A DNA stretch of 64,000 bases, from the NCBI GenBank assembly GCA_003116975.1, contig BGKB01000043.1, positions 391,353 through 455,352 of the forward strand, given 5' to 3'. The position numbers and the translations under genes are program-made. Of the stretch, positions 8,187 to 61,394 are shown in pieces (position 1 is the stretch's first letter; each line of letters starts with the position of its first letter). The notes under the pieces are model-generated. The model saw nothing but the letters and a program-made list of their open reading frames with translations, searched no databases and had not been told where the DNA came from. The stretch is from Aurantiochytrium sp. KH105 (lineage: Eukaryota > Sar > Bigyra > Thraustochytrida > Thraustochytriidae).

Positions 8187-8193
8187 TATATAA
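8187..8193 (+). promoter_or_regulatory. TATA-like motif upstream of receptor copy 2
   Basis: TATATAA lies about 195 bp before the ATG of the second receptor gene. It is a good match to a TATA box, but no transcription start is known, so the assignment rests only on motif and position. Confidence 0.3.
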
Positions 8194-8385
8194 GAAGAAT
8201 GGGCGGCAAAGTTTCCAAGCAAACCACAATCGATGGTTGCTCACCATCTCTAATCCAATTTCAAGCAGGGCCTCGGCATAAATCAGCGATACTCTGGACT
8301 TTTGTCAAGGTTTCAGAGCAAGGCTAAATATCCTGTTGCCGGTCAAGCTGAGTAGACAAGTGCACGCGGTGGCCACCCCGACACC

Positions 8386-32653: not shown

Positions 32654-34762
32654 TTACGTCTCCTTTTCGAATGCTGCTGCTGCTGCTGCTGCTGCTGCCT
32701 CGCTAGTAGAAGGAAAAGTACCAGCAGAAATGTATTGACTGTGAGTCAGTCTGCTATTTGCTGGCTCTGGAACACCAAAGGCATCAAAAGGGACTGCATC
32801 GTAGGCATCGCCAGGGCCAGGGCCAGGGCCAGGGGCGGGGCCGGGGTCGAGGTGATCATTATTGGTGCTACCAGTAGCAGACTCGCCACCATGATTGTAT
32901 GAACCGTCTGAAAAGGCTGGAATGTCATAACCAATCGTTCCCATCTCTCCTCCGACGCCGCCGCCCATGACGCCCAGGGGGGTTGAGTACGTTTCGTACT
33001 GCGAAGATCCACCATAGCCAACACCCAACCCAAGCCCCATGCCAGGGCTCTCACCGTGAAAGGCTCCACCCCCGCCACCCAGCATGAAGGGATCAGGCTG
33101 AGGAAAGAGTGGATCATAATGATCCGTGGCCGGCAGAGGGCGATAACGCTCCTCAAAGAGACCTGAAGCAGAGTAAGAACCAAAGCCCGAAGACAGGTCG
33201 CCCTGATCGGGAAGTGCAGCATAGCCAAGCTGAGGCGGTGCGTTGTGTTCATCCATGTCATCATTATTGGGGTCCCCAAGAGACTCGACAGATCTCTCGA
33301 CGGCAAGGGGAATTCGCAGCTTGTCGCTGTTTTCAAGCACGAGAGCTGCGATTCGCTTGTATACCTCGCCTCCAAGGATGAAGCCGCGATTTGCGTCGGT
33401 GAAGATTTTGGACTGCCGCACACCTTCTGAAGGCGTGACATAGGCCACCACAAGACATCCGTCCTGGCTCTGGCTGAATCGGATAAGAAAGGTGCCCACA
33501 GGGTGACCCTCTAGCATATCTTCGGCATCATCGAAACTAAGGAATCCGCGAAAGAGGCGAGCAGGCCCAATATTTTTCACGTCTGGAGCAGGTTGCTGGA
33601 GCTGGGCCGAATATGCTGCCACAAGTTCCGCAAAGGAATTGTACGAGTGGTTACCACTGACAAAGACGCTCTTCTCGTCCTCGTTTGGAACATAGGCGCG
33701 GAAAAGCGCATGATTGACCACGCCTGTGAGCGCATTTGCATAGCTGACAGCCCACGTGCACACGGAACTTTCGCTGAAGCGAATCAAAAAGGTTCCTGGA
33801 GGGTGCGGAGTCAGCACGCAGCGAGCTTCATCAAAAGAGAGCGCACCTGCGAACCAAGGCGGGCTCGTCAAAGAAGCCTTGAGCTGGATGAGGGCGACAC
33901 GCAGGCCAGGGCCATACCGAAACAAGAAATCTCCGAGCTGATAGACTGTGACGGCTGGCCGTGAGTTCGAGCTCAGTGCGTTTCTCAGTTCAACTCGCAC
34001 GTCTTCGTGCGCGACCAAGCGCGCAACCTTGGGGTCGGCGTGGTTGTCGAGCGCCGTAAAAAACTGCTGCCACGCAACCGCATACTTGCTCTTTCCAAAC
34101 GTTTCGACCCACCACTTGCAGCCTTCTTCGTCCTCAATGAGGTGTTGGATGGAGAGGATGCCGCCTTCAGCACGAAGTCGTGCGGCCAAGTCGGCATTTC
34201 GATCGCGAGACACGCTGGGTGGCGATCCGGCGGTCTCTTGCTCCGTGGCGGCCTTGGCCAGAGTTTCTTCTCCGCGCGGGGAAGCATTCATGGCGGGGTG
34301 AAGATAGGGCTGAACAATATCGACATGAGCGATGAGTTTCTTCTCGATGCGAGTGAAGAAGAGACGGAGCCGCGGACCCGTGAGCGTCAGGCTGAGCTTG
34401 CCATGAAGATTGCAATGGTTGATCTTGTCTCGGAGTGCGGTGAGCAGCTCGAAGAGAATGAGGCACCAGCTCTGGAAGCCAAAGTCGTGCAGGAAGGTAT
34501 TGAGGAGTTGCGGGTTGAAAATCTGGGCGAGCACAGAGCTGCAAAGGGTCAAGGCCACGCGAAGACCGGCGACCTCGTCATCGCTGGGGTGTCTCTCAAG
34601 TCCATGCGTGACCTCTCTGGCGGTCTCGATGCTCATTTTGAGCAGACGCAGACACGTCTTGGCATCCTTGCTCAGGCCCGGGCTCTCCCTGCTCGCCGCC
34701 GCCGCCGCCGACGAGCCGGCGGAGGACTCGCCGCCCTTGGCGCTGCGCCCGGTGAGCCGCAT
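32654..34762 (-). CDS. Cbl/STAT-like signalling protein with two SH2 domains
   Basis: A 702-residue protein. A helical region (about residues 30-160) is followed by an EF-like/linker segment (about 205-285: KWWVETFGKSKYAVAWQQF and later residues) and a first SH2 domain (about 298-390). A second SH2 domain follows at about 397-490. Both SH2 domains keep the phosphotyrosine-binding Arg in FLIRFSES and FLIRFSQS. The helical bundle, EF-like segment and SH2 come in the same order as in the Cbl TKB module (STAT linker-SH2 is similar), but no RING follows. The C-terminal 200 residues are Gly/Pro/Tyr-rich with a PGPGPG run and poly-Ala near the end, possibly a regulatory tail with tyrosine sites. It is likely a cytoplasmic phosphotyrosine reader. 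ATG at 34762 has an ACAAC leader. Confidence 0.85.
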   Translation of the reverse strand: MRLTGRSAKGGESSAGSSAAAAASRESPGLSKDAKTCLRLLKMSIETAREVTHGLERHPSDDEVAGLRVALTLCSSVLAQIFNPQLLNTFLHDFGFQSWCLILFELLTALRDKINHCNLHGKLSLTLTGPRLRLFFTRIEKKLIAHVDIVQPYLHPAMNASPRGEETLAKAATEQETAGSPPSVSRDRNADLAARLRAEGGILSIQHLIEDEEGCKWWVETFGKSKYAVAWQQFFTALDNHADPKVARLVAHEDVRVELRNALSSNSRPAVTVYQLGDFLFRYGPGLRVALIQLKASLTSPPWFAGALSFDEARCVLTPHPPGTFLIRFSESSVCTWAVSYANALTGVVNHALFRAYVPNEDEKSVFVSGNHSYNSFAELVAAYSAQLQQPAPDVKNIGPARLFRGFLSFDDAEDMLEGHPVGTFLIRFSQSQDGCLVVAYVTPSEGVRQSKIFTDANRGFILGGEVYKRIAALVLENSDKLRIPLAVERSVESLGDPNNDDMDEHNAPPQLGYAALPDQGDLSSGFGSYSASGLFEERYRPLPATDHYDPLFPQPDPFMLGGGGGAFHGESPGMGLGLGVGYGGSSQYETYSTPLGVMGGGVGGEMGTIGYDIPAFSDGSYNHGGESATGSTNNDHLDPGPAPGPGPGPGDAYDAVPFDAFGVPEPANSRLTHSQYISAGTFPSTSEAAAAAAAAAFEKET

Positions 34763-36351: not shown

Positions 36352-39300
36352 ATGTCCGCTGACAATGTCACCAAGAAGCCTCGTGTCGAGTTCTCGTGGA
36401 ACTCGGGCGACGCCATTAAGCCCAAGCCCCAGACCAACGGCCCTCCTCGCCCGCAGTCCGAGGCTGCGCAGAACGCCACCCCCAACCCGTACAACTACGA
36501 GGCGTTCAACAGTGTGGAGAAGATCGCCTCTCTCCGCAAAAACGCCGACAAGCTCGACTGGTCGCAGCCTGCTGACCTCTATGACGAGAACTTTCCCGCC
36601 TTTGTCCGTGCCCGTGACAGCGTGCGGTCGTACATTGCCCAGCTCTTTGCTGAGGAGATCGCACTTTATGATGGTGCCATGGGCACGATGATCCAGAACT
36701 ATGCCAAGGACAACACCTTGGAGGAGGCCGAGTACCGCGGTGACCGCTTCAAGGACTGGTCGAACGAAGTCAAGGGCAACAACGACCTTTTGTCGCTCAC
36801 GCAGCCCAAGATCATCAAGGACATTCACCGGGCCTACCTCGACGCTGGCTCGCAGCTGATCGGCACGAACACCTTCTCTTCGACCACGATTGCGCAGGCC
36901 GATTATGCGATGGAAAGTCTTGCGTATGAGCTCAACTACATGGGTGCCAGACTTGCGCGTGAGGCGTGTGACGAAGTGACCGCAGAAGATCCTTCTCGTC
37001 CGCGCTTTGTGGTAGGTGCGCTGGGACCTACCAACCGCACAGGCTCGATCTCGCCCGACGTTGAAGACCCTAGCGCTCGTAACGTGACCTTTGACGAGCT
37101 CGTGGAGGCGTACTTTGAGCAGGTCGTCGGTCTGATGGACGGTGGCGCGGATATTCTGATGGTGGAGACGATCTTCGACACTCTGAACGCCAAGGCCGCG
37201 CTCTTTGCGATCACCGAATACTTGGAAGTGACTGGCCTTGATGTGCCGGTGTTCATCTCGGGCACCCTGGTCGACCAGTCGGGCCGCACGCTTTCAGGCC
37301 AGACGGGCGAAGCTTTCTACGCATCGGTGCGCCACGCCAAGCCGATGTGTGTTGGCCTGAACTGCGCACTTGGCGCACAGCAAATGGCGCCGTTCCTGGA
37401 GCGTCTGAGCAAGGTCGTGGAGTGCTTTGTGCACGTGTACGCCAACGCGGGTCTCCCGAACGCCATGGGCGGGTACGACGACACGCCAGAGGACATGGCG
37501 CGTTACAACACGCCGTTCTTCGAGAACCATCTTGTGAACATGGTTGGCGGCTGCTGCGGCAGCACGCCGCCTCACATTGCTGCTCTCGGTAAAAGCATCA
37601 AAGAGAACGGATACAAGACGCGCGAGCTCCCTGCTCTCGGCATGCCCAAGATGTGGCTCTCTGGACTTGAGGACTTGGTCGTCGATGATGTGTACAACCA
37701 GCATGGTATGCCGTTCCTGAACGTGGGCGAGCGCTGCAACATTGCTGGCTCGCGTAAGTTCAAGCGTCTGATCATGGAAGGCAACTACGGCGAGTGCATG
37801 GATATTGCCAAAGCGCAGGTCTCTGACGGCGCGCACGTGATCGACATCAACGTCGACGACGGCATGCTTGACGGCATGGACGCGATGCAAAAGTTCGTCA
37901 AGATCGCCATCACCGAGCCGGAAGTGTCCAAGGTCCCGTTCATGCTGGACGCGTCGAACTTTGACATTGTCGTCGCTGGCCTCAAGTGGTGCCAGGGCAA
38001 GCCGATCGTGAACAGCATCTCGCTCAAGGTCGGCGAGGAGAAGTTCAAGCAGCAGGCTACGCTTCTGCGCAAGCACGGCGCGGCCGTGGTCGTGATGGCC
38101 TTCGACGAAGAAGGTCAGGCCGCGACGGAAGACGAAAAGGTGCGCATCTGCAAGCGCTCGTACGACATTCTGGTGAACGAGGTGCGGTTCCCACCCGAGG
38201 ACATCATCTTTGATCCGAACGTACTGACGATCGGAACGGGTATGGAGGAGCACAACGCGTATGGCGTGGACTTTATTCGCGCGACGAAGCGCATCAAGGA
38301 GGCTTGTCCGTATGTGAAGATCAGCGGCGGTATCTCGAACCTGAGCTTTGGTTTTCGTGGTGTGTCAAAGATTCGCGAGTCGATCCATGCGGTGTTTCTC
38401 GAGCACGCGATCCTTGAATCGGGTATGGACGTTGGTATTGTGAACGCCGGCGAGCTCAAATGCGCGGACGACGTTGAGCCTGACCTGCGCGAGCTTTGCG
38501 AAGATCTTGTGTTGAACAAGATTCCTGAGGCCACAGAGCATATGCTCGAGGCGACGAGTTATGAACGCGCCGTTCTCGACGCCAAGAAGAAGGGACTTCC
38601 CGCGCCAAAGAAACCTCGCATCAAGGTAACCAAAAAGCCTCGTGTCGAGTTCTCGTGGAACTCGGGCGATGCCATCAAGCCCAAGCCCCAGACCAACGGC
38701 CCTCCTCGCCCGCAGTCCGAGGCTGCGCAGAACGCCACGCCCAACCCGTACAACTACGAGGCGTTCAACAGTGTGGAGAAGATTGCCTCTCTCCGCAAAA
38801 ACGCCGACAAGCTCGACTGGTCGCAGCCTGCTGACCTCTATGACGAGAACTTTCCCGCCTTTGTCCGTGCCCGTGACAGCGTGCGGTCGTACATTGCCCA
38901 GCTCTTTGCTGAGGAGATCGCACTTTACGATGGTGCCATGGGCACGATGATCCAGAACTATGCCAAGGACAACACCTTGGAGGAGGCCGAGTACCGCGGT
39001 GACCGCTTCAAGGACTGGTCGAACGAAGTCAAGGGCAACAACGACCTTTTGTCGCTCACGCAGCCCAAGATCATCAAGGACATTCACCGGGCCTACCTCG
39101 ACGCTGGCTCGCAGCTGATCGGCACGAACACCTTCTCTTCGACCACGATTGCGCAGGCCGATTATGCGATGGAAAGTCTTGCGTATGAGCTCAACTACAT
39201 GGGTGCCAGACTTGCGCGTGAGGCGTGTGACGAAGTGACCGCAGAAGATCCTTCTCGTCCGCGCTTTGTGGTAGGTGCGCTGGGACCTACCAACCGCACA

Positions 39301-42300
39301 GGCTCGATCTCGCCCGATGTGGAGGACCCTAGCGCTCGTAACGTGACCTTTGACGAGCTCGTGGAGGCGTACTTTGAGCAGGTTGTCGGTCTGATGGACG
39401 GTGGCGCGGATATTCTGATGGTGGAGACGATCTTCGACACTCTGAACGCCAAGGCCGCGCTCTTTGCGATCACCGAATACTTGGAAGTGACTGGCCTTGA
39501 TGTGCCGGTGTTCATCTCGGGCACCCTGGTCGACCAGTCGGGCCGCACGCTTTCAGGCCAGACGGGCGAAGCTTTCTACGCATCGGTGCGCCACGCCAAG
39601 CCGATGTGTGTTGGCCTGAACTGCGCACTTGGCGCACAGCAAATGGCGCCGTTCCTGGAGCGTCTGAGCAAGGTCGTGGAGTGCTTTGTGCACGTGTACG
39701 CCAACGCGGGTCTCCCGAACGCCATGGGCGGGTACGACGACACGCCAGAGGACATGGCGCGTTACAACACGCCGTTCTTCGAGAACCATCTTGTGAACAT
39801 GGTTGGCGGCTGCTGCGGCAGCACGCCGCCTCACATTGCTGCTCTCGGTAAAAGCATCAAAGAGAACGGATACAAGACGCGCGAGCTCCCTGCTCTCGGC
39901 ATGCCCAAGATGTGGCTCTCTGGACTTGAGGACTTGGTCGTCGATGATGTGTACAACCAGCATGGTATGCCGTTCCTGAACGTGGGCGAGCGCTGCAACA
40001 TTGCTGGCTCGCGCAAGTTCAAGCGTCTGATCATGGAAGGCAGCTACGGCGAGTGCATGGATATTGCCAAAGCGCAGGTCGCTGACGGCGCGCACGTGAT
40101 CGACATCAACGTCGACGACGGCATGCTTGACGGCATGGACGCGATGCAAAAGTTCGTCAAGATCGCCATCACCGAGCCGGAAGTGTCCAAGGTCCCGTTC
40201 ATGCTGGACGCGTCGAACTTTGACATTGTCGTCGCTGGCCTCAAGTGGTGCCAGGGCAAGCCGATCGTGAACAGCATCTCGCTCAAGGTCGGCGAGGAGA
40301 AGTTCAAGCAGCAGGCTACGCTTCTGTGCAAGCACGGCGCGGCCGTGGTCGTGATGGCCTTCGACGAAGAAGGTCAGGCCGCGACGGAAGACGAAAAGGT
40401 GCGCATCTGCAAGCGCTCGTACGACATTCTGGTGAACGAGGTGCGGTTCCCACCCGAGGACATCATCTTTGACCCGAACGTACTGACGATCGGAACGGGT
40501 ATGGAGGAGCACAACGCGTATGGCGTGGACTTTATTCGCGCGACGAAGCGCATCAAGGAGGCATGTCCGTATGTGAAGATCAGCGGCGGTATCTCGAACC
40601 TGAGCTTTGGTTTTCGTGGTGTGTCAAAGATTCGCGAGTCAATCCATGCGGTGTTTCTCGAGCACGCGATCCTTGAATCGGGTATGGACGTTGGTATTGT
40701 GAATGCTGGCGAGCTCAAATGCGCGGACGACGTTGAGCCTGACCTGCGCGAGCTTTGCGAAGATCTTGTGTTGAACAAGATTCCTGAGGCCACAGAGCAT
40801 ATGCTCGAGGCGACGAGTTATGAACGTGCCGTCCTCGACGCCAAGAAGAAGGGTCGGCCAGCGCCAAAGAAACCTCGCATCAAGGTAACCAAGAAGCCTC
40901 GTGTCGAGTTCTCGTGGAACTCGGGCGACGCCATCAAGCCCAAGCCCCAGACCAACGGCCCTCCTCGCCCGCAGTCCGAGGCTGCGCAGAACGCCACGCC
41001 CAACCCGTACAACTACGAGGCGTTCAACAGTGTGGAGAAGATTGCCTCTCTCCGCAAAAACGCCGACAAGCTCGACTGGTCGCAGCCTGCTGACCTCTAT
41101 GACGAGAACTTTCCCGCCTTTGTCCGTGCCCGCGATAGCGTGCGGTCGTACATTGCCCAGCTCTTTGCTGAGGAGATCGCACTTTACGATGGTGCCATGG
41201 GCACGATGATCCAGAACTATGCCAAGGACAACACCTTGGAGGAGGCCGAGTACCGCGGCGACCGCTTCAAAGACTGGTCGAACGAAGTCAAGGGCAACAA
41301 CGACCTTTTGTCGCTCACGCAGCCCAAGATCATCAAGGACATTCACCGGGCCTACCTCGACGCTGGCTCGCAACTTATTGGCACGAACACTTTCTCTTCG
41401 ACCACGATTGCGCAGGCCGATTATGCGATGGAAAGTCTTGCGTATGAGCTCAACTACATGGGTGCCAGACTTGCGCGTGAGGCGTGTGACGAAGTGACCG
41501 CAGAAGATCCTTCTCGTCCGCGCTTTGTTGTAGGTGCGCTGGGACCTACCAACCGCACAGGCTCGATCTCGCCCGACGTTGAAGACCCTAGCGCTCGTAA
41601 CGTGACCTTCGACGAGCTCGTGGAGGCGTACTTTGAGCAGGTCGTCGGTCTGATGGACGGTGGCGCGGATATTCTGATGGTGGAGACGATCTTCGACACT
41701 CTGAACGCCAAGGCCGCGCTCTTTGCGATCACCGAATACTTGGAAGTGACTGGCCTTGACGTGCCGGTGTTCATCTCGGGCACCCTGGTCGACCAGTCGG
41801 GCCGCACGCTCTCGGGGCAGACGGGCGAAGCTTTCTACGCATCGGTGCGCCACGCCAAGCCGATGTGTGTTGGCCTGAACTGCGCACTTGGCGCGCAGCA
41901 AATGGCGCCGTTCCTGGAGCGTCTGAGCAAGGTCGTGGAGTGCTTTGTGCACGTGTACGCCAACGCGGGTCTCCCGAACGCCATGGGCGGGTACGACGAC
42001 ACGCCAGAGGACATGGCGCGTTACAACACGCCGTTCTTCGAGAACCATCTTGTGAACATGGTTGGCGGCTGCTGCGGCAGCACGCCGCCTCACATTGCTG
42101 CTCTCGGTAAAAGCATCAAAGAGAACGGATACAAGACGCGCGAGCTCCCTGCTCTCGGCATGCCCAAGATGTGGCTCTCTGGTTTGCAAGATCTTGTTGT
42201 GGATGACGTCCACAATCAACTTGGCATGCCGTTCCTGAACGTGGGCGAGCGCTGCAACATTGCTGGCTCGCGTAAGTTCAAGCGTCTGATCATGGAAGGC

Positions 42301-44949
42301 AACTACGGCGAGTGCATGGATATTGCCAAAGCGCAGGTCGCTGACGGCGCGCACGTGATCGACATCAACGTCGACGACGGCATGCTTGACGGCATGGACG
42401 CGATGCAAAAGTTCGTCAAGATCGCCATCACCGAGCCGGAAGTGTCCAAGGTCCCGTTCATGCTGGACGCGTCGAACTTTGACATTGTCGTCGCTGGCCT
42501 CAAGTGGTGCCAGGGCAAGCCGATCGTGAACAGCATCTCGCTCAAGGTCGGCGAGGAGAAGTTCAAGCAGCAGGCTACGCTTCTGCGCAAGCACGGCGCG
42601 GCCGTGGTCGTGATGGCCTTCGACGAAGAAGGTCAGGCCGCGACGGAAGACGAAAAGGTGCGCATCTGCAAGCGCTCGTACGACATTCTGGTGAACGAGG
42701 TGCGGTTCCCGCCCGAGGACATCATCTTTGACCCGAACGTACTGACGATCGGAACGGGTATGGAGGAGCACAACGCGTATGGCGTGGACTTTATTCGCGC
42801 GACGAAGCGCATCAAGGAGGCATGTCCGTATGTGAAGATCAGCGGCGGTATCTCGAACCTGAGCTTTGGTTTTCGTGGTGTGTCAAAGATTCGCGAGTCG
42901 ATCCATGCGGTGTTTCTCGAGCACGCGATCCTTGAATCGGGTATGGACGTTGGTATTGTGAATGCTGGCGAACTTCTCGGCGCTGACGAGGTGGAGCCCG
43001 ATTTGCGCAAACTCTGTGAGGATCTTGTCCTGAACAAGACACCACAAGCGACGGAGCGCATGCTCGAGGCCACACAGCGTGAGCGCGAGCGACTGAAGCG
43101 TCTGAAGGAGGGTGGCGGCGAAGCAGCTGCGGCTGAGAAACCGACCGACTGGCGCGCCAAACCTGTCAAGGAGCGTCTGTCTCACGCTCTGGTCAATGGC
43201 ATCACTAAATTCATTGAAAAGGATGCGGAGGAAGCACGTCTGGCGTCCGCGAAACCTCTCGACGTGATTGAAGGCCCCCTGATGGACGGCATGGGCATCG
43301 TTGGCGATCTTTTTGGGTCGGGTAAAATGTTCTTGCCCCAGGTCATCAAATCGGCGCGTGTTATGAAGAAGGCCGTGGCGTACCTTGAGCCTTTTATCGA
43401 GGCCGAAAAAGAGGAGAACCTTCGCAAGCTCGGCATTGATCCAAACGACGCCGACCCAGACGAGGTCTCGCAGGGTACTTTTCTGATCGCAACTGTCGCT
43501 GGTGACGTGCACGATATCGGCAAGAACATCACAGCTGTCATTCTCGGATGCAATGCTGTACGTGTGATCGACCTCGGCGTCATGTGCGCTTGCGATGATA
43601 TTATCAAGGCCGCAAAGGAAAACAAGGTGGATGCGGTCGGCCTTTCAGGTCTCATCACGCCTAGTCTTGACGAAATGGTCAAGGTGGCCAAGGAGATGAA
43701 GAAGGCTGGGCTCGATATTCCTTTATTGATTGGCGGTGCAACGACGAGCAAGCGCCACACCGCCATCAAGATCTCCCCCCACTATTCGACCCCGGAGCAT
43801 CCAGTCATTCATGTTCTCGACGCTAGTCGCGCCGTCACGGTTGTGCAGACACTTCTTTCCGAGGAAGACAAGCCCGATTTCGTGGAGGAAATCCAGGAGG
43901 ATTATGCTGAAATCGTGGAAGATTACTACGCAGGCCTCGAGGAACGCAAGTTCTTTTCCCTCGAAGTTGCACAGAAGAAGCGCCTCGAGATCGATTTCGA
44001 GGCAAGCCCTCTCGCACCCGCGCCCCAGGTTGGCATCGGTGCCAAGGCCGCTCCCACGTGCGCGATCGAGGATGTCGTGCCATACATTGACTGGGGCCCC
44101 TTCTTCCAGACATTTGAGCTGCGCGGTCGCTACCCGAACCGCGGCTACCCCAAGATCTTCAACGACGCGAACGTTGGCGAGGAGGCACGCAAGCTCTTTG
44201 ACGATGGTCAGGCTCTCCTCAAGCAGATTATGGAAGACAAGAGCCTTTGGCTCGAGGGCTCGTATGGCATCTTCCCTGCGAACCGGGCTGACAATGGCGA
44301 GGATGTCATTATTTACGAAGATGAGACGCGGACGGTCGAGCGCAGCAGGCTGTGCATGCTTCGTCAGCAAGCGCAGAGCGAGGCAGCGAATATGCTTAGC
44401 CAGGCCGATTTTGTCGCGCCGCCCGGATTTGAGGACTATATCGGCGGCATGGCTGTTGCTTGCCACGGCGTCGAGGACCTCGCGAGCAAGTACAAGGCCG
44501 AGCATGATGACTTTACGGCAATTCTTGCCCAGGCCATCGGCGATCGTCTCGTTGAGGCCTTTGCGGAGAAGCTGCATCGTGATATCCGTGTCGAGCTCTG
44601 GGGCTACGCCAAGGAGGAGGCCCTCAAGCATGAGGACCTGCTTAAGATCAAGTACGACGGCATTCGCCCTGCCCCCGGTTACCCGACGCAGCCTGATCAC
44701 ACCGAGAAGGATGTCCTCTGGGATCTCATTGAGGCGGAGAAGCTGGCCCACATGACGCTCACATCAAGTTACAGCATGGTCCCCGCCTCGAGTGTCTCGG
44801 CACTCGTTTTTGCTCATCCACAGTCTGAGTACTTTGCTGTCGGCCAGATCCAGAAGGATCAGGTCGAGAGCTATGCCGAACGCAAGGGCGAGTCTGTGGA
44901 ATTCGTTGAGAAGTGGCTCGGATCCAACCTTGCCTACGATACCGCTTAG
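36352..44949 (+). CDS. Cobalamin-dependent methionine synthase with triplicated N-terminal half
   Basis: One open frame of 2,865 residues. The usual MetH has about 1,230 residues in the order homocysteine domain, folate (pterin) domain, cap plus cobalamin domain, AdoMet activation domain. Here the first two occur three times: residues 7-759, 760-1512 and 1513-2265, each 753 residues. Each unit keeps the zinc cysteines (GLNC at 338, GGCC at 401-402, repeated at +753 and +1506). Single downstream copies follow: cobalamin motif [10 protein letters not shown] with the ligand His at 2387, and the activation domain with RPAPGYP at 2772 and [13 protein letters not shown]. The enzyme transfers methyl from 5-methyl-tetrahydrofolate to homocysteine through B12. 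Each unit begins with about 100 residues not found in bacterial MetH. The C-terminal parts of units 1 and 2 end in a [10 protein letters not shown] linker, whereas unit 3 runs into the normal linker. ATG at 36352. Confidence 0.95.
36370..38628 (+). repeat. Methionine synthase tandem unit 1
   Basis: First of three direct units with an exact 2,259-bp period (753 codons). It encodes one N-terminal extension, homocysteine domain and folate domain. It differs from the others at scattered sites, for example GTCTCTGAC near 37820 where units 2 and 3 have GTCGCTGAC. Confidence 0.95.
38629..40887 (+). repeat. Methionine synthase tandem unit 2
   Basis: Second 2,259-bp unit. Private differences include an Arg to Cys change (CTTCTGTGC near 40321), Asn to Ser (GGCAGCTAC near 40039) and synonymous changes such as GATGTGGAGGAC near 39317. 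It starts at the [15 protein letters not shown] junction. Confidence 0.95.
40888..43146 (+). repeat. Methionine synthase tandem unit 3
   Basis: Third unit. It carries a private diverged patch (about 42182-42228, protein [15 protein letters not shown] against [15 protein letters not shown]) and a different last part of roughly 60 codons (from about 42970), where it continues into the normal linker to the cobalamin module instead of the [10 protein letters not shown] linker. Confidence 0.9.
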
Positions 44950-45125: not shown

Positions 45126-46484
45126 CTACGTTTTACTCATGAGTCTTTGTCCCTGGCCAGAATTGGAAGCGATCAGCTCAAAATCGGTTCCATTGAGGCT
45201 CTGGTCATCCCCAAAGCCACTGCTGTGGTCATCACCGAGGTTGTCGCCGTAATCTTCAAAGATAAAGAGCCCTTCCTCCTCGTCCCGGATGTGACCTCCA
45301 CTGGCGGCGCCGTACTTACCACCTGCGTGGGGCGCCTCAGCCCTGGCACGGTGCTTAATTACAGTGTACAAGAACATTCCCAAAAGCGTCAGCAGGAATC
45401 CGAGCAAATTTAACGGCGTCAGTACGTCATGAAACACGACGACAGACAATCCGATCTGCAACATCTGCTTGACATAGCTGATGACTCCGAGCGTCACGGA
45501 CGAGGTGCGGCGCAGCAGCTCCAGTTCGACAAGAATCATGGAGAACGCAAAAAGTCCACTCCCTACAATGTTCAGAACTGTGTACGGCAATAGACTGGCG
45601 TCGATGAACTTGGATTGGAAAAATCGCTCGCCATCGACCCACAAACTCAGCGGGATGAGCGAGAGCGCCGAGGCGGGTGAGATGAGATAAATGGTTAAGA
45701 TCGCGTCCAGATTGCACCGAATTTGCTTCATGAGCACCTGTGTTAGTGACCACCGGAAACCACCAACTGCCGACGACCCAATGACAAGAAGAAATCCAAT
45801 GGTGCTGAATTCCGTGTCTCCCATTGACGCCAGCACCACCCCGACGACGATGACAGACACCGCGCAGAACAGGGACAGAGAGCACGGTTGCAGCTTGTAG
45901 AGCACCGAGAAGAGGAGTGTAAAAACCAGACTTGAGCTCTTGACAATTGTGTAAAAGGTCACACTCACGTACAGGTACGAGGCATTACTGGCAGCGACAT
46001 CAAGCGCGGTGGCGCAGCCAACTGGCACGGCTGAGAGCCACCAAACTCGTCGTGGGATGTCGGGAATTGCGAAAGAGTTGCATCGGACCATGGCGAGCGA
46101 AAGAAAGTACTTGATGCCCATGTGCAGCATCGAGATGAGCAAGGGGAAGTTGAAGCCGCCCTCCCAGCTGTGCAGCAGCCACTTGTTGTAGACGACCATG
46201 GACACCGAGAAGCCAAACCATAGTGCACTCCAGTACGCGATCTCCGCTACTTCTAGCGTGAGCTCACGCCTCTTCCCGGGCATCAGCGTCCTCCGCGCGA
46301 CCGCGCCTGCGAGCCGGCAGCAGCCCGCGAGCGCAAAGAGCACGAGGCCATCGAGCACGAGGAAGATGAATTGCTCTCGCGCCTCGTCCGCCGCCGCCGC
46401 CTGCTGCGAGGCGAGGCTTGCCGCGCTCGGCGCTGCGCTCGGCCCTGCGCTCGGCGCGGCGGTCCACGGCGCCGAGGCATTCAT
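45126..46484 (-). CDS. SLC35/TPT-family transporter (SLC35C2-like)
   Basis: A 452-residue drug/metabolite-type transporter. After an Ala/Ser-rich N terminus there are about ten hydrophobic segments. Family stretches include VVYNKWLLHSW at the second segment, FPLLISMLHMGIKY, and ALDVAASNASYLYVSVTFYTIVKSSS, which is characteristic of the triose-phosphate-translocator/SLC35C and E groups. The C terminus is acidic and cytoplasmic. It likely exchanges a nucleotide sugar or sugar phosphate across a Golgi or ER membrane; the substrate is unknown. The open frame reaches a GTG at 46568, but the first ATG is at 46484. It is convergent with methionine synthase, with 176 bp between stops. Confidence 0.88.
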   Translation of the reverse strand: MNASAPWTAAPSAGPSAAPSAASLASQQAAAADEAREQFIFLVLDGLVLFALAGCCRLAGAVARRTLMPGKRRELTLEVAEIAYWSALWFGFSVSMVVYNKWLLHSWEGGFNFPLLISMLHMGIKYFLSLAMVRCNSFAIPDIPRRVWWLSAVPVGCATALDVAASNASYLYVSVTFYTIVKSSSLVFTLLFSVLYKLQPCSLSLFCAVSVIVVGVVLASMGDTEFSTIGFLLVIGSSAVGGFRWSLTQVLMKQIRCNLDAILTIYLISPASALSLIPLSLWVDGERFFQSKFIDASLLPYTVLNIVGSGLFAFSMILVELELLRRTSSVTLGVISYVKQMLQIGLSVVVFHDVLTPLNLLGFLLTLLGMFLYTVIKHRARAEAPHAGGKYGAASGGHIRDEEEGLFIFEDYGDNLGDDHSSGFGDDQSLNGTDFELIASNSGQGQRLMSKT

Positions 46485-47489
46485 CGCAGGGCCCGCGCTC
46501 TGCTGGGCCGCTTGCAAGCTAGGCCTGCTGCTTTTGCTTCGCGGCCTGACCCGAATCGGATGGGTCACTTACTCACTCCACACACGATCGTCTTCCATTA
46601 TGATAATAGAAGCAAGTCAGGAGGACTCGATGGCGCACGAAGCTATCTGTCTGTACCTGCTCAGCTCCGACGTTAGGGCGACGAGGTGCCTTGCGGCATG
46701 GTCCCGAAAGCACGCTGCGAGGAGGGCGCCGGAAGCTCAGGTTTTAGGAAACGTATTGATTGACGAGGGAGAAGGCAGGTGGAGGTGATTGATCGAGCAG
46801 GGGACGAAAAGAAATACTTTTTGGCGTCGGTCGGTCTTGGCAGCCTTCAGGCCCAGACCTCCAGGCAAAAGCTGTTTCGCTGACTGCAGAGCGTATGCAC
46901 ATAGTCGCACGCACGTACATGTTCGATGCGGTGGTTTCGTTTTTTTATTCTTCTCTGTGATCGGAGACAGGCAGGCGGTTTCTCTTTCGGAAAATCGATT
47001 TTCGCGCGCGAAGTCTTGAGACCACGAGAATTTCAATCGCATGCGGCTCGTTCACTCAGCTTTGCGCGGCAGCTACATCAGCGTCTTTACCACATCGTTT
47101 TCTGTTCCTACGACGTCAAGCCAAGGCTGAAGAACGAATGCATTTCGGTTTCCACTTTCGGATCTCGCCATCTCCCATTTCTTCTCTGAAGACTGACGTT
47201 GAAGCCACGAGCATCCCGCCAGGAATCCTCGTTTCCTTATCCTTTCGTTTGCTTTTATCTCCTGCACCTCCGTCACCTTCTCCTCCCGACTCCTATCCGT
47301 CCAGTCACCGTCATCCTCCTCATCGTTTCTCATCGCCGGCCGTCGGGCGCCGCATCACACCCTCGCTTGTGACCTTCAGGACGTCCTCGCACTCCTCCCG
47401 CTTTCACTAATCCGCCCTCGCGAAACCTCCATTTCTCCTTCTCTTTCTCCTCTTTTCTCTCCCCTTCCTCGCCCTTCTCCGTCTCCTTC

Positions 47490-48388: not shown

Positions 48389-51300
48389 ATGGACAGCACA
48401 GCGCCAGCCGAAACAAGCCATATAGATGGCGAGAATGAAGAGGTGTCCTGGGAATTCGACTGCCCACAATACACAGACTTCGCGCTCGAGGAGGAAATGG
48501 ACGAGAACAGCGAAGTCACCAACGAAGACGGTTTTTTCGCCGTCCGCGAACAGTACCAGGTCTTTCGGAACAACATCCCTGACGACTGGCTGCGCAACAT
48601 CGAGAAGAAAATCAACGTGGAAGGCACAGAAAGATCCATGTTTCACCCATCACACCCAAACTACATGCCCCCACAGACCAAGCCAGGAGCGTCCAACGGT
48701 GGCGCAAAGGACGCGGATAACGAAAATGGCGAGAATGAAAATTCCATCAACGTCAATGTAGACCCTTCGCACGGCGTCCCGGACCCACGCAAACCGCTGA
48801 CCCCGGACTCGGAGTCGCGGAAAGAAGTCGTGCTGGACCAGTACACCGCTCCCAACGAGAAGCTGCCACATCCCAGCTTTCTCCAGGACAGCGCGGACGA
48901 CAACGTTGGCAGCCTCGGATCCGAGGGTTCGCCCGTGCCTGATCTTTTGAGCCCCGATCTGAACGACTACGATGGCCCAACTGTAGATGCTTTTGGTCAA
49001 GAAGCGACCGTCGACGAGTGGACCATGGACGATGCACAAGCCCTCGCCGACAGCGGGCTAAACGACGATGAGGATCAGATGATTTCTGGGTCCTCCGGTG
49101 ATGCGCAAGCTGCTGCAGCTTCGCCCAAAACTCCTGCCCAGGAACTGGACGTCTCCGTTGATGACGAGACAGGCCTTGAGGAGCAGCTCGATGAGCTTCA
49201 CCTCGGTACCGAGGAGACAGCTGGCCACCACGTCGAAGACCATGTAGAGAAGAACACCGAAGACACTGCATCTGCGGTGCAGTCGGACGCGGCTGCTGGG
49301 CGTAACCAAACGCCTGGCACGCCTGCCCAGTCTGCCGGGACACCCGCTGCGGTCAAGCCAGACGAGGCTTTGGAGCACAAACAAGCGGCCAGTACCCCTG
49401 CCCAGTCTGGCAGTGCACCAGACTTCGCGGCCACACCGCCCATGCCTCCAGCTTCCCCGGCTGCGGCAGAGGCAGAGAACGCGATGAACGTGTCTACAAC
49501 AGCCATTGCAAACTCACCTTTGGCTGCGACGGAGATGGAAACGCCTGCAACTGCTCAGCCTGGCACCTCTGTGACGGACACCTCTGTGACGGAGAAGCCC
49601 GGCACGCCCGCGACGACTCAGGCGAAGACGCCTGGAACTCGTCTTCCTGACACGCCTGCAACCAGCACAGCTGGCTCCCCAGTTTCTGTCACGAACGCCG
49701 ATGCAGCGACACCTGCAACCCAATCGGTCTCTTCGCCGGCCGCTTCGCCTGCGATGAGATTCACCCCGTTTGAATCTCGCATTCCGCGTTCCGCAAGCAA
49801 GGCGACGCCCGGGCACTCGTTCATGTCCCCCGCCATGCACAGCCTTGCATCGCCCAGCTCCCGTGCGCAACCATTCTCGGCGGCTTCGCGCATTCCACGC
49901 TCTGGGCAAAAGGCTTTTAGCGCGCACAAGGAGCGTGGGCGCTCAATGACTCGCCAGAATCCTGGAAGCGCTATGCGGAGTGGGAGCGTCAAGAGCTCCC
50001 GAAGCTTCGCCTCGGGTGGCGGAACTCCGTCTTACATGCTTCCCACGGACAATTGGTCGCGAAACCAGGAGGAGCACAACAATGCCCAACGCCGTCCAGG
50101 GGGATCGCGCAGGGCGACTCCTGGAAGCGGCGGATACTTTGGGACTAAGAAGGCAAAGGCCGTCTCGCGCCCCAAGTTGACCGAACCGCAGACCCCGTCG
50201 TTCATGAAAAATGTGCGACCCCGGCGTGCTAACCGTCCAAGCAGCACAACTGTGGAACTCGAGCGTGCGCGTCAAGAGCTGGAAGATCGCCGCCGCGAGC
50301 TCGAGAAGCGACCCGAGGAAATTCAGCGCGTCCTCGCCAGCAACAACGTCCCCAAGCCGGCAAAGAAGCCGCTCACCAAGGGCGAGGCTCCGTCGCTTCA
50401 GCTCGATCAGCGCCTCGGATCGAGAAAAGTCACGCCAAACTCAGCTTCGAAGAAGGATGCTCCGGAGGCCAAAGCTCGGCCCAGTGCAGCAAGCAACGGC
50501 CCCGTGCGCTTGACGAAGCCCAAGGACTTTCAGTTCGCCACGGATAAACGCGTCGGCGGTCGTCATCCCGAAGCGAGCGAATCGGCTCCCTTCGAATCTC
50601 TTGCGTCCCAAGTGCACAACTTTCTGCACAAGACCCCCGCGAGGTACAAGCATCGCACGGGACTCGAGCTCCCTGCCAAGAGCGTTCCGCAGCTGACTGA
50701 ACCAGAGGAGCCCAAGTTCCATACGGACATGCGTCTTCGGGCTCCTGTCGCCAAATCTCGCGAAGAGCTCGAGGAGGAGGCCCTGAAGAACTTCAAGCCT
50801 TTCAAGGCGCGCCCCCTGCCCGACAACGTAATGCATAGCAATGGCGAAGTGGGTGTACCCAAGGTCGAAAAGAAAGCGCCGGTTGTGCCGAAGGCATTCA
50901 ATTTCCGCACGGATCAGCGTGCGTCGACCCGTCGCCCCAACGATGAGAATGCGCCGATGAACCAAGCGACGACAAGGCCGCGACGCAACTCGCTCGGTAG
51001 CCAGCGCAGCTTGGGGAAGAGCTGGGTGCCAAAGCCGACCCGCTTCGCACCTTTCAACCTCCGTACGGACTCTCGGGCAACCACGCGACCCATGGTGGCA
51101 TCTCCCTCGGTATTTTCGGATCCGGAGCAAGAGCGAAGCTTCCATGCCCGTCCAATGCCGAACTTTAACCGCCCTCCCAATGTCCCGACGGTCAACAGGC
51201 GCGAGCTTAGCGCTCCTGCTCCGTTCAACCTGCAGGGCCTTCGTCGCCATGAGATTGCGATGCAGCGGCGTCAGGAAGAACTCCAAAGGCAGCAGGAGGA

Positions 51301-51874
51301 GGAAGAGCGGGCTCGCCATTTCAAGGCACGGCCGATCTGCGTTCCAGTGAACGAGCCTGCGGTGCTTGCCAGCGAAAAGCCTTTGACGGAGCCAGCTACT
51401 CCTATGGCGCTCCGCCGGTCTATTCTCAAGCAGCAAGCGCGCGAGGAGCGCCTGGCCCAGGAGCGCCAAGACGAGATGGAGCGACACCAATTCCATGCGC
51501 GTCAATTGCCTCGCTCAACCTTTGAAAAGACCTTTGAGCTCAAGCTTCCAGGGCGCGTCTCTGGTGTCCTTGACATCAAGCTGCAAAGTGATATTCGTGC
51601 AGAACAACGTCGGGAGTTCGATCGCATGATGGAGGAGAAACTGCGCATGCAAGAAGAAGAAAGGAAGCGCGAGGAGGAACGCAAGCGACTCGAAGAGGAG
51701 GAGGCCATTCGCGAATACCGCAAGACCCTCGTCAGCAAGGCGCGGCCCATGCCGTCCTACAGTAGAGGACGTGGGACGGCACGCATGCCCACGCCGCCCC
51801 GTTTGACTCAACCTGAGTCACCCTTCCTTGTCACCAAGGCACGTGGTGGTCCCAAGAATGCTCATGTACAGTAA
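48389..51874 (+). CDS. TPX2 spindle assembly factor
   Basis: A 1,161-residue microtubule-associated protein. The N terminus has the Aurora-A-binding type motif (VSWEFDCPQYTDF, about residues 19-31, matching the tyrosine/proline/aspartate pattern of animal TPX2). A long Thr/Pro/Ala-rich disordered stretch (about 270-560) has many TP and SP sites. The C-terminal half carries the repeated TPX2 motifs: FxFxTDxR types near 713, 837 and 889, FKARP/FHARP types near 805, 918, 978 and 1035, FELKLPGRVSG near 1049 and SKARPMP near 1116, with a Glu/Arg-rich helix at about 1072-1110. It activates Aurora kinase and nucleates spindle microtubules in mitosis. It is longer than human TPX2 (747 residues), mainly from the disordered region. 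Confidence 0.9.
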   Translation: MDSTAPAETSHIDGENEEVSWEFDCPQYTDFALEEEMDENSEVTNEDGFFAVREQYQVFRNNIPDDWLRNIEKKINVEGTERSMFHPSHPNYMPPQTKPGASNGGAKDADNENGENENSINVNVDPSHGVPDPRKPLTPDSESRKEVVLDQYTAPNEKLPHPSFLQDSADDNVGSLGSEGSPVPDLLSPDLNDYDGPTVDAFGQEATVDEWTMDDAQALADSGLNDDEDQMISGSSGDAQAAAASPKTPAQELDVSVDDETGLEEQLDELHLGTEETAGHHVEDHVEKNTEDTASAVQSDAAAGRNQTPGTPAQSAGTPAAVKPDEALEHKQAASTPAQSGSAPDFAATPPMPPASPAAAEAENAMNVSTTAIANSPLAATEMETPATAQPGTSVTDTSVTEKPGTPATTQAKTPGTRLPDTPATSTAGSPVSVTNADAATPATQSVSSPAASPAMRFTPFESRIPRSASKATPGHSFMSPAMHSLASPSSRAQPFSAASRIPRSGQKAFSAHKERGRSMTRQNPGSAMRSGSVKSSRSFASGGGTPSYMLPTDNWSRNQEEHNNAQRRPGGSRRATPGSGGYFGTKKAKAVSRPKLTEPQTPSFMKNVRPRRANRPSSTTVELERARQELEDRRRELEKRPEEIQRVLASNNVPKPAKKPLTKGEAPSLQLDQRLGSRKVTPNSASKKDAPEAKARPSAASNGPVRLTKPKDFQFATDKRVGGRHPEASESAPFESLASQVHNFLHKTPARYKHRTGLELPAKSVPQLTEPEEPKFHTDMRLRAPVAKSREELEEEALKNFKPFKARPLPDNVMHSNGEVGVPKVEKKAPVVPKAFNFRTDQRASTRRPNDENAPMNQATTRPRRNSLGSQRSLGKSWVPKPTRFAPFNLRTDSRATTRPMVASPSVFSDPEQERSFHARPMPNFNRPPNVPTVNRRELSAPAPFNLQGLRRHEIAMQRRQEELQRQQEEEERARHFKARPICVPVNEPAVLASEKPLTEPATPMALRRSILKQQAREERLAQERQDEMERHQFHARQLPRSTFEKTFELKLPGRVSGVLDIKLQSDIRAEQRREFDRMMEEKLRMQEEERKREEERKRLEEEEAIREYRKTLVSKARPMPSYSRGRGTARMPTPPRLTQPESPFLVTKARGGPKNAHVQ

Positions 51875-53355: not shown

Positions 53356-56300
53356 CTACACAATTTCCTCTTCCTCCTCCTCTTCCTCGACAACATTGTC
53401 GCTATTCTCGAGATCGATGTTGAAGAGTTCGCTCGCGGCTGGACTCGGTGCAGGAAGCGGCGTCATTCCTGGGCCAGGCGAAGGCGAGGGCATAGGAAAA
53501 CTGATTCCTGGGCTCGGACTCGGGCGGGGCATATCCGGACCCGGACTGGGCGTCGGACCGCCGCTGAAAAAGTCATTGCCAGGCGTCGCCGAGGGCCCAT
53601 CATCGTCCGCAAATGGGTCAAAGCTCATAGACGACTGTGAAGAAAGGTTCGCTTGCTGCTGCTGCTTTGGCTGCTGCGCCATGGTTGACGATGACGACGA
53701 TGACGAGGAACTTCCTCCAGCGGCAGCAGCGGTTGGGGGATTTGGCATCGCCTTAAAGAGAGAGTTCACTTTGCGGCGCTTGTTTGACCCGGCGCCTGAA
53801 CCAGACGATGAAGGGGGCGGAGGCGCTGCTGCGCCACTGTCGATAATGTTCTGCTCGAGCTGTGCGAGAACGTCGCTCATCTTGGCCATAGAATTCTCTG
53901 CCGTGCTCACAAGCTCGCGCGCCTTGCGCGTGATTTCGTTCTCATTGCCATTGAAAGTGGCGGCATTGCTCAGCATAAGGTTGAGATCTTCCATGAAGCC
54001 CGCGCGAGAGGTGTACTGCAAACCCTCGATCTTCTGCTTGATCTTGCCCAAGTACATGGGCTTTTTGATGATATCGTAATACCGGGGGACAGCTTGCTTG
54101 TTAACCTTCTTTCGAAAGAGCTCGGCCTCGCGCATCACGTAAAGCTCCTGATACACCTTCATGAGTTTTTCGCTCAGGTCTGACACGGGGCCCACACGCC
54201 TGTTGCCACCCCGTTTCTGTCGCTTGGCAGACTTGCTCGAGGGCTCGGTCTTGCCACCGAGCTGGCGCTTGCGCGCCTGTAGGAAACTCTTGACGCCCGT
54301 GCGCTGGCTAATGCGGCCCACCACGGGGGGAACAGATGGGGCTATGGGCAACTTCAATTTCAGACCCTTCATTTTCACCTGGTCGTTGTCCTTGAGCTCA
54401 AAGTGGTTAAGCGGGCAGATGCGCGCATTGCTCACGTGTCCAGGAAGACCGCAAGTGCGGCAGCGCTTTTGATCGCCCTCCGCTTTGACGGTTGAAGGCC
54501 AGTTCTTGCCGTACTGACGAATGTTCGCCTGATACTCTTCAAAACGTTTCTTGCCCTCGATACGGTCTCGCTCCTGCACCCTCGGCGGAGGTGGAGCGCG
54601 ATTACGCGCTTTGCTGTCCAGCGCAGGCCGCGTGAGCCTCCGCGAGCCCTCCGCAAGGCTCTCGCGCTTGCGAATATCTTCGCGCACCTGTTTGACGAGC
54701 TCTGGAGCCTTGATGTACTCGACGCTGACCTCAGTCTCCCCGTTGGGAAGGTTGCGAATCACCGTGCGCCGCACCACCTGCTGCTTGCGGAAAGGAGGCT
54801 GACCAGGGAGGTTGGCCGGGATCTGCCTCATTTTGGCACGATCCGCAGCTTCCTTCAGGATTGCCTCGTTCTTTTGCTTGTCATCATCCGTCATGTGGCG
54901 CTTGGTGATGTTCTGCTTGAATAGAGCAAGCATTCGCTCCTCGTCACTCATGCGCTCTCCCTTCTTTTTCCCAGCCGCCGCGCCTGACGCGCCGTCTTTC
55001 TGGTCGAGAAGGTTCTCGCTGGACTGCATCGGGCCTGCCAGACTTGCTTTGAACATGTCCAGATTTGCGCCGCCATCGTCCGAATCATCGGAGGAGTCTG
55101 AGTCCGAGTCCGAATCATCATCCTTGGCCGCGGCGCCAGACGCTTTGTTTGCGCCAGAAGCAGCTCCGGAGGTCGCGGCAGGCCCAGTGCCCGCGGCAGA
55201 TGCGCTTGCCTTGGCTGCCTTCTTTTTCGCCTTTTTTGCAGCCTTGGCCTGTTTTCTTGCCTCCTTGTCGTCAGCTTTGGAGCCAGACTTGTCGTCAGTC
55301 TTGGCATCTGCTTTTGCGTCAACTCCCGCGGCGTTCGCCTTGCTTGTTGAAGCCGCATCGGAGCCGGCGGCTCCGGGCTCGGTCACGTTCGCCGCTCCAC
55401 CTTCGTCGACAGAGCTTGCGTCAGAGTCATCCGAGTCATCCGAGTCCGAGTCACTGTCGAGATCTTCAAGAATCGCTTCATCCTCTTGCTCCATCTTGGC
55501 CGAAGATTTGGCTTTGGCGGACTTGGGATTCCCATCCTCGTCCTCCTCGTTTTCTGCTGCCTCGTCGTCTTCGTCCTCGTCCTCATCTTCTTCGTTCTCA
55601 TCGTCCTCGTCATCCTCGTCGTCTGCATCGTCATCCTTGCCGCCATCTTCGCCGTCGTCACCGTCTGCGTCGTCCTCGCCCTCCTCTTGACCGTCTTCAC
55701 CATTGGCCTTGCGCTTGCGCTTCTCGGCACGTTCGCGCTTACGCTTTTCCTTTTTACGCGCCTTGCGCTCGCGCCGCTTTTCCTCTTCAAGAACGTACGC
55801 GGGGGGTTGCTGCTGGCTAATAGCCTTAATCTGCTTCTCAAAGAGAGCGTTGACGCGCTTTTGCACAACGTCGCGCTCACGAATGTCCTTCTCGGTAAGC
55901 TTGGGCGCGTTGCGTGCAAACTTTGTGAGAAAAGGAATGTTAGCAGCGCCACCGTAGGCAGAGGCGTACTCTTCGACAAGCATGATGCGATCCCAGCGGT
56001 CGAGGAGATCAATCTCCTCCCATTCGTGGCCAAAAAGAGAAAGAATTTTGGCGCCCACCTCGAGGGTGAGACCACGCAGATCGCGCTCAGTACCACCATA
56101 CCGGTCACTGCGCTTTTTCTTTTCATTGTTGTCCTGTTGTTTGTCCTCTGCATCGGCAGCTTTAACAGCACTAAGGGCAGCTGCAGTGGCAGCAGCGCCA
56201 GCCACCATTCGGTGCCGAAACTTGTTGCGCGCCCCCTTACGAATGGAACCCTCAATAGACTCTGGCAAGTAGCTAATAGCCTCATGTCGGCCCGAGGGCT

Positions 56301-61281: not shown

Positions 61282-61394
61282 ATGAAGAAGGCGACAGAGA
61301 CCCCGACGCGACCAACAGCGATTGTGACAGCGAAAGCGACGACGACGACGACGACGACGACTGCGAGGGCGGCTTTGTCGAACTCCGAGCTTGA
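61146..61394 (+). other. Upstream open frame overlapping the GTPBP-like start
   Basis: An ATG at 61146 opens an 82-codon frame that overlaps the proposed GTPase start in another frame. Its product has an acidic end with eight consecutive Asp. The same GAC/ACG repeat reads as poly-Thr in the GTPase frame. It could be a regulatory upstream ORF, or the true N terminus joined by an intron I cannot locate. Confidence 0.3.

What the first reader, a model, noticed from the sequence alone, without database searches (positions are those of the whole stretch)
36352..44949. Methionine synthase with three complete homocysteine/folate modules feeding one B12 module
Sequence shows one uninterrupted 2,865-codon frame with three 753-codon units, each with all three zinc cysteines, followed by a single cobalamin and a single activation domain. 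Known MetH enzymes have one of each. If the protein is made as read, three methyl donor and acceptor sites could share one corrinoid, which I have not seen described. Alternatives are internal processing, alternative start use, or misassembly.
Basis: partly seen in the sequence, partly recalled or inferred. Interest (0 to 1): 0.88.

Follow-up and report, generated by a model that had tools for sequence, protein, structure and literature searches.

The report
Methionine synthase with repeated catalytic halves
This marine protist's vitamin-B12-dependent methionine synthase carries three complete copies of its catalytic half but only one B12-carrying half, and the same odd design, with two to four copies per B12, turns up in many algae, where it seems almost unnoticed.

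Summary
Window 36352-44949 is one open frame of 2,865 codons (315 kDa) with three 753-codon homocysteine + folate units, then one Cap, one B12 and one activation domain. It is unlikely to be an assembly error: a second contig of the same genome, collinear with the window at mostly about 95% identity, has the same gene with two units; the units carry private variants; independent public sequences share the design. The genome looks like a Hondaea-type thraustochytrid; no MetE was found in it.

The design is not unique. Of 280 sequences examined, 157 hold two to four complete catalytic units and none more than one full B12 domain. They include thraustochytrids, diatoms, a pelagophyte, green algae, streptophyte algae and dinoflagellates. 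All 80 bacterial loci kept from one scan have a single homocysteine domain. Tails after each unit differ by position and are conserved between species, while unit cores are nearly identical within most proteins: old duplication plus concerted evolution. Each zinc cysteine persists in at least 330 of 334 units.

Best reading: one cobalamin serves several tethered catalytic halves. That step is inferred. One 2015 paper noticed a doubled domain in one diatom; my searches found no other description.

The parts
36352..44949 (+). metH with three catalytic units, 2,865 aa
36367..38625 (+). unit 1 (753 codons): N-terminal extension, Hcy barrel, Fol barrel, inner-type tail
   Evidence: unit boundaries
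38626..40884 (+). unit 2, inner-type tail
   Evidence: aligned to human MTR N-half
40885..43143 (+). unit 3, terminal-type tail that leads into the Cap domain
36664..37593 (+). homocysteine domain (S-methyl_trans) of unit 1; zinc Cys codons at 37363 and 37552-37557
   Evidence: residues 105-414
38923..39852 (+). homocysteine domain of unit 2 (same residues, +2,259 bp); zinc Cys codons at 39622 and 39811-39816
41182..42111 (+). homocysteine domain of unit 3; zinc Cys codons at 41881 and 42070-42075
37726..38445 (+). folate domain (Pterin_bind) of unit 1, placed from unit 3 by the repeat spacing
   Evidence: three stretches; coordinates printed for unit 3
39985..40704 (+). folate domain of unit 2, placed from unit 3 by the repeat spacing
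42244..42963 (+). folate domain of unit 3, residues 1965-2204
38452..38625 (+). inner-type tail after unit 1 (position-specific)
40711..40884 (+). inner-type tail after unit 2
42970..43143 (+). terminal-type tail after unit 3
43168..43389 (+). single Cap domain (B12-binding_2), residues 2273-2346
43477..43749 (+). single cobalamin domain (B12-binding), residues 2376-2466; DVHDIGKN motif begins at residue 2385 (codon at 43504)
44065..44889 (+). single activation domain (Met_synt_B12), residues 2572-2846; RPAPGYP at residue 2772

Best explanation
It is a cobalamin-dependent methionine synthase with a repeated catalytic half. One polypeptide carries two to four Hcy-Fol double barrels in series (here three; two on the other haplotype) ahead of one Cap-Cob-Act half. 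The single cobalamin is probably methylated and demethylated at whichever barrel holds substrate, so that several active sites serve one corrinoid and one repair domain. The array arose by old in-frame duplication; unequal recombination and gene conversion keep the unit cores alike and make the unit number drift, while position-specific tails persist. Shown here: the architecture, two loci with different unit number, its spread, intact residues, homogenised cores, position-specific tails. Inferred: translation as one chain in this organism, use of all units, and a gain in turnover per B12.
For: Domain content. Collinear counterpart contig with a two-unit gene. 157 of 280 sequences have at least two complete units, none has two full Cob domains. 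Core dN/dS is about 0.016 between haplotypes for unit 1 and lower for the last unit; dS within a haplotype 0.037-0.083 against 0.114-0.162 between. Zinc ligands kept in 333, 333 and 330 of 334 units. Of 20 proteins whose units have drifted below 93% identity, 14 keep all 12 checked residues in all complete units (Asp, Ser or Ala accepted at one folate-motif position). Inner and last tails are told apart by conserved motifs. Two-unit proteins from transcript sources: P0005 Mucochytrium and P0027 (mmetsp), P0247 (eukprot, 'type:complete'). Published structures describe rigid Hcy-Fol pairs on flexible linkers (PMC10567725, PMC13376404; passages). No MetE hit, MMADHC present.
Against: No expression, protein or enzyme data for this gene. 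No read data. Structure prediction could not be run. The nearest published model (Hondaea P0003), identical to the window's allele over 571 C-terminal columns, has two units, not three. 6 of the 20 drifted proteins have lost a key residue in one unit, 5 of them in an upstream unit, so upstream units are not always needed in full. Two multi-unit species, Phaeodactylum and Chlamydomonas, also have MetE (PMC4523565, section 11), so the design is not tied to B12 dependence. Single-unit forms exist among close stramenopile relatives.
Confidence: 0.62

Rival explanations
1. Only the last unit, next to the B12 half, works with the cobalamin. Upstream units are passengers of a recombination-prone in-frame repeat, kept intact because gene conversion copies them from the selected unit.
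For: Strong homogenisation. When units drift apart, 5 of 6 losses of key residues are in an upstream unit. Unit number changes often (20 changes of label on a 69-row tree) and differs between two haplotypes.
Against: 14 of 20 drifted proteins keep all checked residues in all complete units. P0247 and P0249 keep an upstream Hcy barrel at 79-83% while its folate barrel has fallen to 53-58%, which looks like selection on the upstream Hcy barrel. One loss lies in the last unit (P0067). Position-specific tails have been kept over long times.
Confidence: 0.24
2. Transcript or protein processing: unit-skipping splicing or proteolysis yields mostly single-unit enzymes, and the array is a store of alternative or extra catalytic halves.
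For: Nine AG-GT positions in unit 1 would allow exact skipping of one unit. The Phaeodactylum gene model treats one unit as a 2,280-nt in-frame intron (PMC4523565); the model P0177 here has one unit.
Against: Such sites are expected by chance in near-identical repeats. The same paper reports ESTs from the 'intron'. Multi-unit proteins come from transcript collections (P0005, P0027, P0247).
Confidence: 0.1
3. Assembly artefact: the third unit, or the whole array, is a mis-join of near-identical reads.
For: The units are near identical; the closest published model, from Hondaea (P0003), has two units and is otherwise very close to this allele. I have no reads.
Against: Unit 2 has 5 private core variants against the other four units of the genome, units 1 and 3 have 6 and 15. 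The second locus is an array too. P0002 and Chrysophaeum P0004 have three units with other linkers. P0003's two units are 100% identical, as a collapsed consensus would be; assemblers tend to collapse such repeats (general knowledge).
Confidence: 0.04

Closest known systems
Canonical MetH / MTR (human MTR 9ssp, 4ccz; Thermus 8ssc, 8g3h)
   Same: Same five domains in the same order; unit 2 and the C-terminal half align to human MTR along nearly their whole domain lengths.
   Different: Canonical MetH has one Hcy-Fol half per Cob-Act half; here there are three (two to four in relatives).
Phaeodactylum tricornutum METH, Phatr2 23399 (PMC4523565, section 11 read)
   Same: A second in-frame MetH + pterin region of 2,280 nt, about one unit long, with ESTs.
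   Different: Reported as an aside about an 'intron' in one diatom, 'to be verified experimentally'; no mention there of wider spread, three or four units, or homogenisation.
Split MetH of some bacteria (20 of 80 loci)
   Same: Shows that the Hcy module need not be fused to the rest.
   Different: One Hcy domain per locus; separate polypeptides rather than a repeated fusion.
Tandem acyl-carrier domains of PUFA synthases, also in thraustochytrids (PMC5067506, PMC3585217; abstract openings seen in the listing)
   Same: In-frame repeats of one functional module in a multidomain enzyme; productivity is reported to rise with the number of carriers.
   Different: There the carrier is repeated; here the catalytic modules are repeated and the carrier (Cob) is single.

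Membership tests
Cobalamin-dependent methionine synthase (MetH) | Homocysteine domain with three zinc cysteines | tested here: met
   Three copies, all nine cysteines
Cobalamin-dependent methionine synthase (MetH) | Folate-binding barrel next to it | tested here: met
   Three Pterin_bind stretches; unit 2 aligned through both barrels to human MTR
Cobalamin-dependent methionine synthase (MetH) | Cap and B12-binding domain with DxHxxG motif (motif recalled) | tested here: met
   B12-binding_2 and B12-binding; DVHDIGKN at residue 2385
Cobalamin-dependent methionine synthase (MetH) | SAM-binding activation domain | tested here: met
   Met_synt_B12, 347.7 bits against a cut-off of 25
Cobalamin-dependent methionine synthase (MetH) | One catalytic half per B12 half (usual architecture, not a chemical requirement) | tested here: not met
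   Three to one in the window, two to one in the second locus
Cobalamin-dependent methionine synthase (MetH) | Methyl transfer from methyl-THF to homocysteine via bound cobalamin | not testable with these tools
   Needs an enzyme assay
Cobalamin-independent methionine synthase (MetE) | Meth_synt_2 domain | tested here: not met
   No hit in the genome; 10 of 14 control genomes rang

The most novel reading that the evidence does not exclude
Multi-unit MetH is an old and widespread class of algal and protist enzyme in which one cobalamin is shared by two to four intact catalytic halves, raising methyl turnover per scarce corrinoid. It has been kept by concerted evolution since before the split of chlorophytes from streptophytes and of labyrinthulomycetes from ochrophytes, and has been hidden by collapsed assemblies and by gene models that call units introns.
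Probability: 0.42. Interest if true: 0.9.

Novelty: new variant of a known kind. Interest (0 to 1): 0.8.

Why it matters
B12 dependence of microalgae is set by the lack of MetE, so that METH must do the work (abstract of PMC6557843, seen in the listing). If one B12 serves several catalytic halves, estimates of B12 quota and turnover in plankton rest on a wrong stoichiometry. MetH is also a classic problem in domain choreography: natural enzymes with one to four catalytic halves per corrinoid make it testable whether exchange on the barrels or domain motion limits the rate. For evolution, it is a clear case of concerted evolution inside one gene, with conserved position-specific tails as the witness. 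For annotation, METH lengths in algal genomes need checking.

Tried and rejected
Misassembly as the whole explanation: rejected on the two-unit counterpart, private variants and independent relatives. Stand-alone unit genes: the genome search with the Hcy family scored 10 places, five of them the units of the two metH loci and five in other frames of 334-393 codons, not examined further. MetE rescue: no hit, with 10 of 14 control genomes positive. MMACHC: no hit, but no control rang either, so no conclusion. Unit-skipping splicing: not excluded, see rivals.

Limits. The two long-query protein searches admit only proteins of roughly 1,530 to 5,010 aa, so the counts are not frequencies; single-unit forms of green algae and dinoflagellates were hardly sampled, and only the best 120 hits of each of three searches were available (of 308, 8,000 and 337 over threshold). 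'Single-unit' entries may be collapsed assemblies, fragments or skipped units. Lineage lists were made by hand from hit order; one search grouped by best BLAST match to three reference units. Pairs are not independent. The tree (69 rows that I chose) is a quick search with 24 of 66 inner branches under 80. Domain models were built from the first hits themselves. The folate residues checked were picked from family motifs (recalled). Structure prediction could not be run, so contacts between units are unknown.

Full report
What is there. The frame at 36352-44949 (+) is 2,865 codons without a stop. It holds three S-methyl_trans, three Pterin_bind and one each of B12-binding_2 (Cap), B12-binding and Met_synt_B12 domains. 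The unit is 753 codons; repeat spacing is exactly 2,259 bp twice. All nine zinc cysteines are in place. Unit 2 aligns through both barrels to human MTR (4ccz E 4.6e-233; 9ssp E 1.7e-232) and the C-terminal part, from the end of unit 3, to 9ssp (E 2.2e-211).

Whose genome. The assembly is 76 Mb in 367 contigs. The nearest named protein is methionine synthase of Hondaea fermentalgiana, 99% identical, and a C-terminal tree puts both window genes with it (100% SH-aLRT), so I take it for a Hondaea-like thraustochytrid (inference). The three B12-related families that hit, Met_synt_B12, MMADHC and methylmalonyl-CoA mutase, gave two places each, which fits a two-haplotype assembly.

Two loci with different unit number. 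A second metH lies on contig C193. Its stop-to-stop frame is 2,121 codons against 2,874, one unit fewer; from the same start it codes for 2,112 aa with two units. The 70 kb of C193 that I fetched match the window in the same order over nearly its whole length, at 86.7-95.7% in the long pieces, mostly near 95%. Unit 2 of the window has 5 private core variants, units 1 and 3 have 6 and 15, the other locus's units 10 and 9.

Selection and homogenisation. Over the 695-codon core, unit 1 against unit 1 of the two loci gives dN 0.0019 and dS 0.119; last unit against last gives 0.0006 and 0.134; the single-copy C-terminal part gives 0.0043 and 0.134. Within a haplotype dS is 0.037-0.083, between haplotypes 0.114-0.162, so the units have been homogenised within each. 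Twenty-eight core sites separate the three A units from the two B units, but 11 join the two last units: homogenisation is incomplete. The last 58 codons behave otherwise: first against first and last against last differ at 0 and 1 amino-acid codons, first against last of the window at 25. Tails are inherited by position, cores are shared.

The design is widespread. A search with the whole protein, which admits only long proteins, gave 308 hits, best 120 listed. A search with a 900-residue piece, to find single-unit forms, scored the 8,000 candidates that share most words, best 120 listed. A third used a dinoflagellate-like protein: 337 hits, best 120 listed. Of the 280 sequences so gathered (the window protein, P0002-P0279 and the second locus), 157 have at least two complete Hcy-Fol units: 138 two, 18 three, 1 four; 114 of the 157 also have one Cap, one Cob and one Act (at 60% coverage or more). 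None has two full Cob domains; one broken gene model (Symbiodinium CCMP2592, P0242) has two Caps. Named holders include Hondaea and Mucochytrium (thraustochytrids), Nitzschia inconspicua and Epithemia (diatoms), Chrysophaeum (pelagophyte), Chlorella, Micractinium, Parachlorella, Volvox, Pleodorina, Chlamydomonas, Botryococcus, Trebouxia, Myrmecia, Bryopsis, Haematococcus and a pedinophyte (green algae), entries labelled Mesvir1 and Chlat1 (which I read as Mesostigma and Chlorokybus, streptophytes), and Polarella, Prorocentrum, Symbiodinium natans and Effrenium (dinoflagellates) (higher groups recalled). Haematococcus has four complete units; Bryopsis three and a fourth that is broken in the model. 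Single-unit forms also exist: 89 of the 280 have one complete unit with Cap, Cob and Act, some of them cut-off multi-unit proteins; named ones include Ectocarpus, Pythium, Cyclotella and Skeletonema. By contrast all 80 bacterial loci kept have one Hcy domain: 60 fused, 20 on a separate frame.

Old duplication, young-looking units. Within-protein unit identity has a median of 99.6% (lowest 79.7%); in 97 of 121 multi-unit proteins of the first two searches every within-protein value exceeds the best match outside. In a tree of all units 132 of 157 multi-unit proteins have their units as one clade; the other 25 include both window loci and other sets of near-identical relatives, but also drifted ones. 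Many recent duplications could give this too, but the tails speak against it. In stramenopile-like proteins the tail carries a K-P-R/K motif in 79 of 86 first, 4 of 4 middle, 0 of 86 last and 1 of 108 single tails, while W-R/K follows in 86 of 86 last and 1 of 86 first tails. Among 74 dereplicated stramenopile-like proteins same-position tails are closer in 2297 of 2701 pairs, crossed in 225, tied in 179; for cores 2277 of 2485 pairs tie, 132 same, 76 crossed. In green algae same-position tails are closer in 185 of 253 pairs, crossed in 26, tied in 42; one residue is Cys in 58 of 62 last and 13 of 15 middle tails but in 11 of 62 first tails, which have mostly Arg or His (44 of 62). Against this: same-position tails are closer than the tails within one protein in only 39 of 253 green pairs (1393 of 2701 stramenopile-like pairs), so green tails are partly homogenised too, and three dinoflagellate-like proteins gave 1 same and 2 crossed. 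So the duplication looks ancestral at least to thraustochytrids plus diatoms, and to the green line; unit number has changed often (20 changes of label on a 69-row tree). Whether the green, dinoflagellate and stramenopile arrays share one origin I cannot say; by eye their linkers are not alike.

Are the extra units alive? The three zinc cysteines are kept in 333, 333 and 330 of 334 units of multi-unit proteins (118, 118 and 117 of 118 in the rest); eight of nine folate-motif residues in 332 to 334, the ninth, an Asp, in 315, being Ser or Ala in 19 units, all from dinoflagellate-like proteins. Gene conversion alone could keep dead units intact, so drifted proteins are the better test: of 20 with units below 93% identity, 14 keep all residues in all complete units (Asp, Ser or Ala accepted at that one place) and 6 do not. 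In 5 of these 6 the changed unit is upstream; in P0067 it is the last. P0049, P0098 and P0127 lost zinc ligands upstream (P0127 is cut off before the Cap). P0247 and P0249, whose first units group together, kept the upstream Hcy barrel (79-83% identical to the last) while the folate barrel fell to 53-58%. This points to a last unit that is rarely dispensable and upstream units that are useful but can be pared down to one barrel.

Mechanism. MetH is described as domains on flexible linkers 'akin to beads on a string', with Hcy and Fol moving as one rigid body (PMC10567725, passages), and human MTR as two or three independent modules (PMC13376404, abstract and passages). More rigid Hcy-Fol bodies on the string ask for no new chemistry: Cob would meet whichever holds substrate. 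The likely gain is turnover per cobalamin, if exchange of substrate and product on a barrel pair is slow against domain encounter; I found no source here for which step limits the rate. This organism seems to depend on the enzyme: no MetE hit with 10 of 14 controls positive, while MMADHC and methylmalonyl-CoA mutase are present. But Phaeodactylum and Chlamydomonas have METE as well (PMC4523565, section 11), so B12 economy is not the whole story.

Prior description. Ten literature searches ran (eight aimed at this enzyme's make-up, 57 at kinetics, 64 at tandem carriers; open-access library only), and I looked into seven papers, mostly by passages. One precedent: PMC4523565 (section 11 read) notes that the Phaeodactylum gene has a 2,280-nt in-frame 'intron' coding a second MetH and pterin domain, with ESTs, to be verified. 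A 2024 survey of METH in algae and plants (PMC11439496, 12 of 17 passages shown) checked Pfam presence; those passages do not describe repeats. Subscription papers and supplements were not searchable.

Verdict. A real and apparently ancient variant of MetH that seems overlooked. The architecture is close to certain; the shared use of one cobalamin is the leading but untested reading.

Noticed in passing
window 4459-18819 (+): Four tandem class-C GPCR-like genes (ANF_receptor + 7tm_3), three of them close copies; the C193 counterpart seems to have one fewer, so a second repeat in the window also differs in copy number between the haplotypes.
   Followed up: partly
P0100 (Chlamydomonas reinhardtii CHLRE_06g250902v5): The deposited model has three Hcy domains but a mostly missing middle folate domain and no Cap; it looks like a gene-model break in an array.
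   Followed up: no
P0247, P0249: Dinoflagellate-like two-unit METH in which the upstream folate barrel has decayed while the upstream Hcy barrel is kept: a natural test of module sharing.
   Followed up: partly
P0049, P0098, P0127: Upstream unit has lost zinc ligands while its folate barrel is 90-98% identical to the other unit's.
   Followed up: no
P0177 (Phaeodactylum METH model): One-unit model whereas the literature reports an in-frame second unit called an intron; other 'single-unit' diatom models may be alike.
   Followed up: no
window 32654-34762 (-), 45126-46568 (-), 48389-51874 (+), 53356-59385 (-), 22556-24148 (+), 61192-63585 (+): Neighbours by Pfam: double SH2 protein, TPT-type transporter, TPX2, DUF3591 + bromodomain (TAF1-like), ERGIC/ERV with thioredoxin, GTP_EFTU. 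Nothing that bears on metH.
   Followed up: partly
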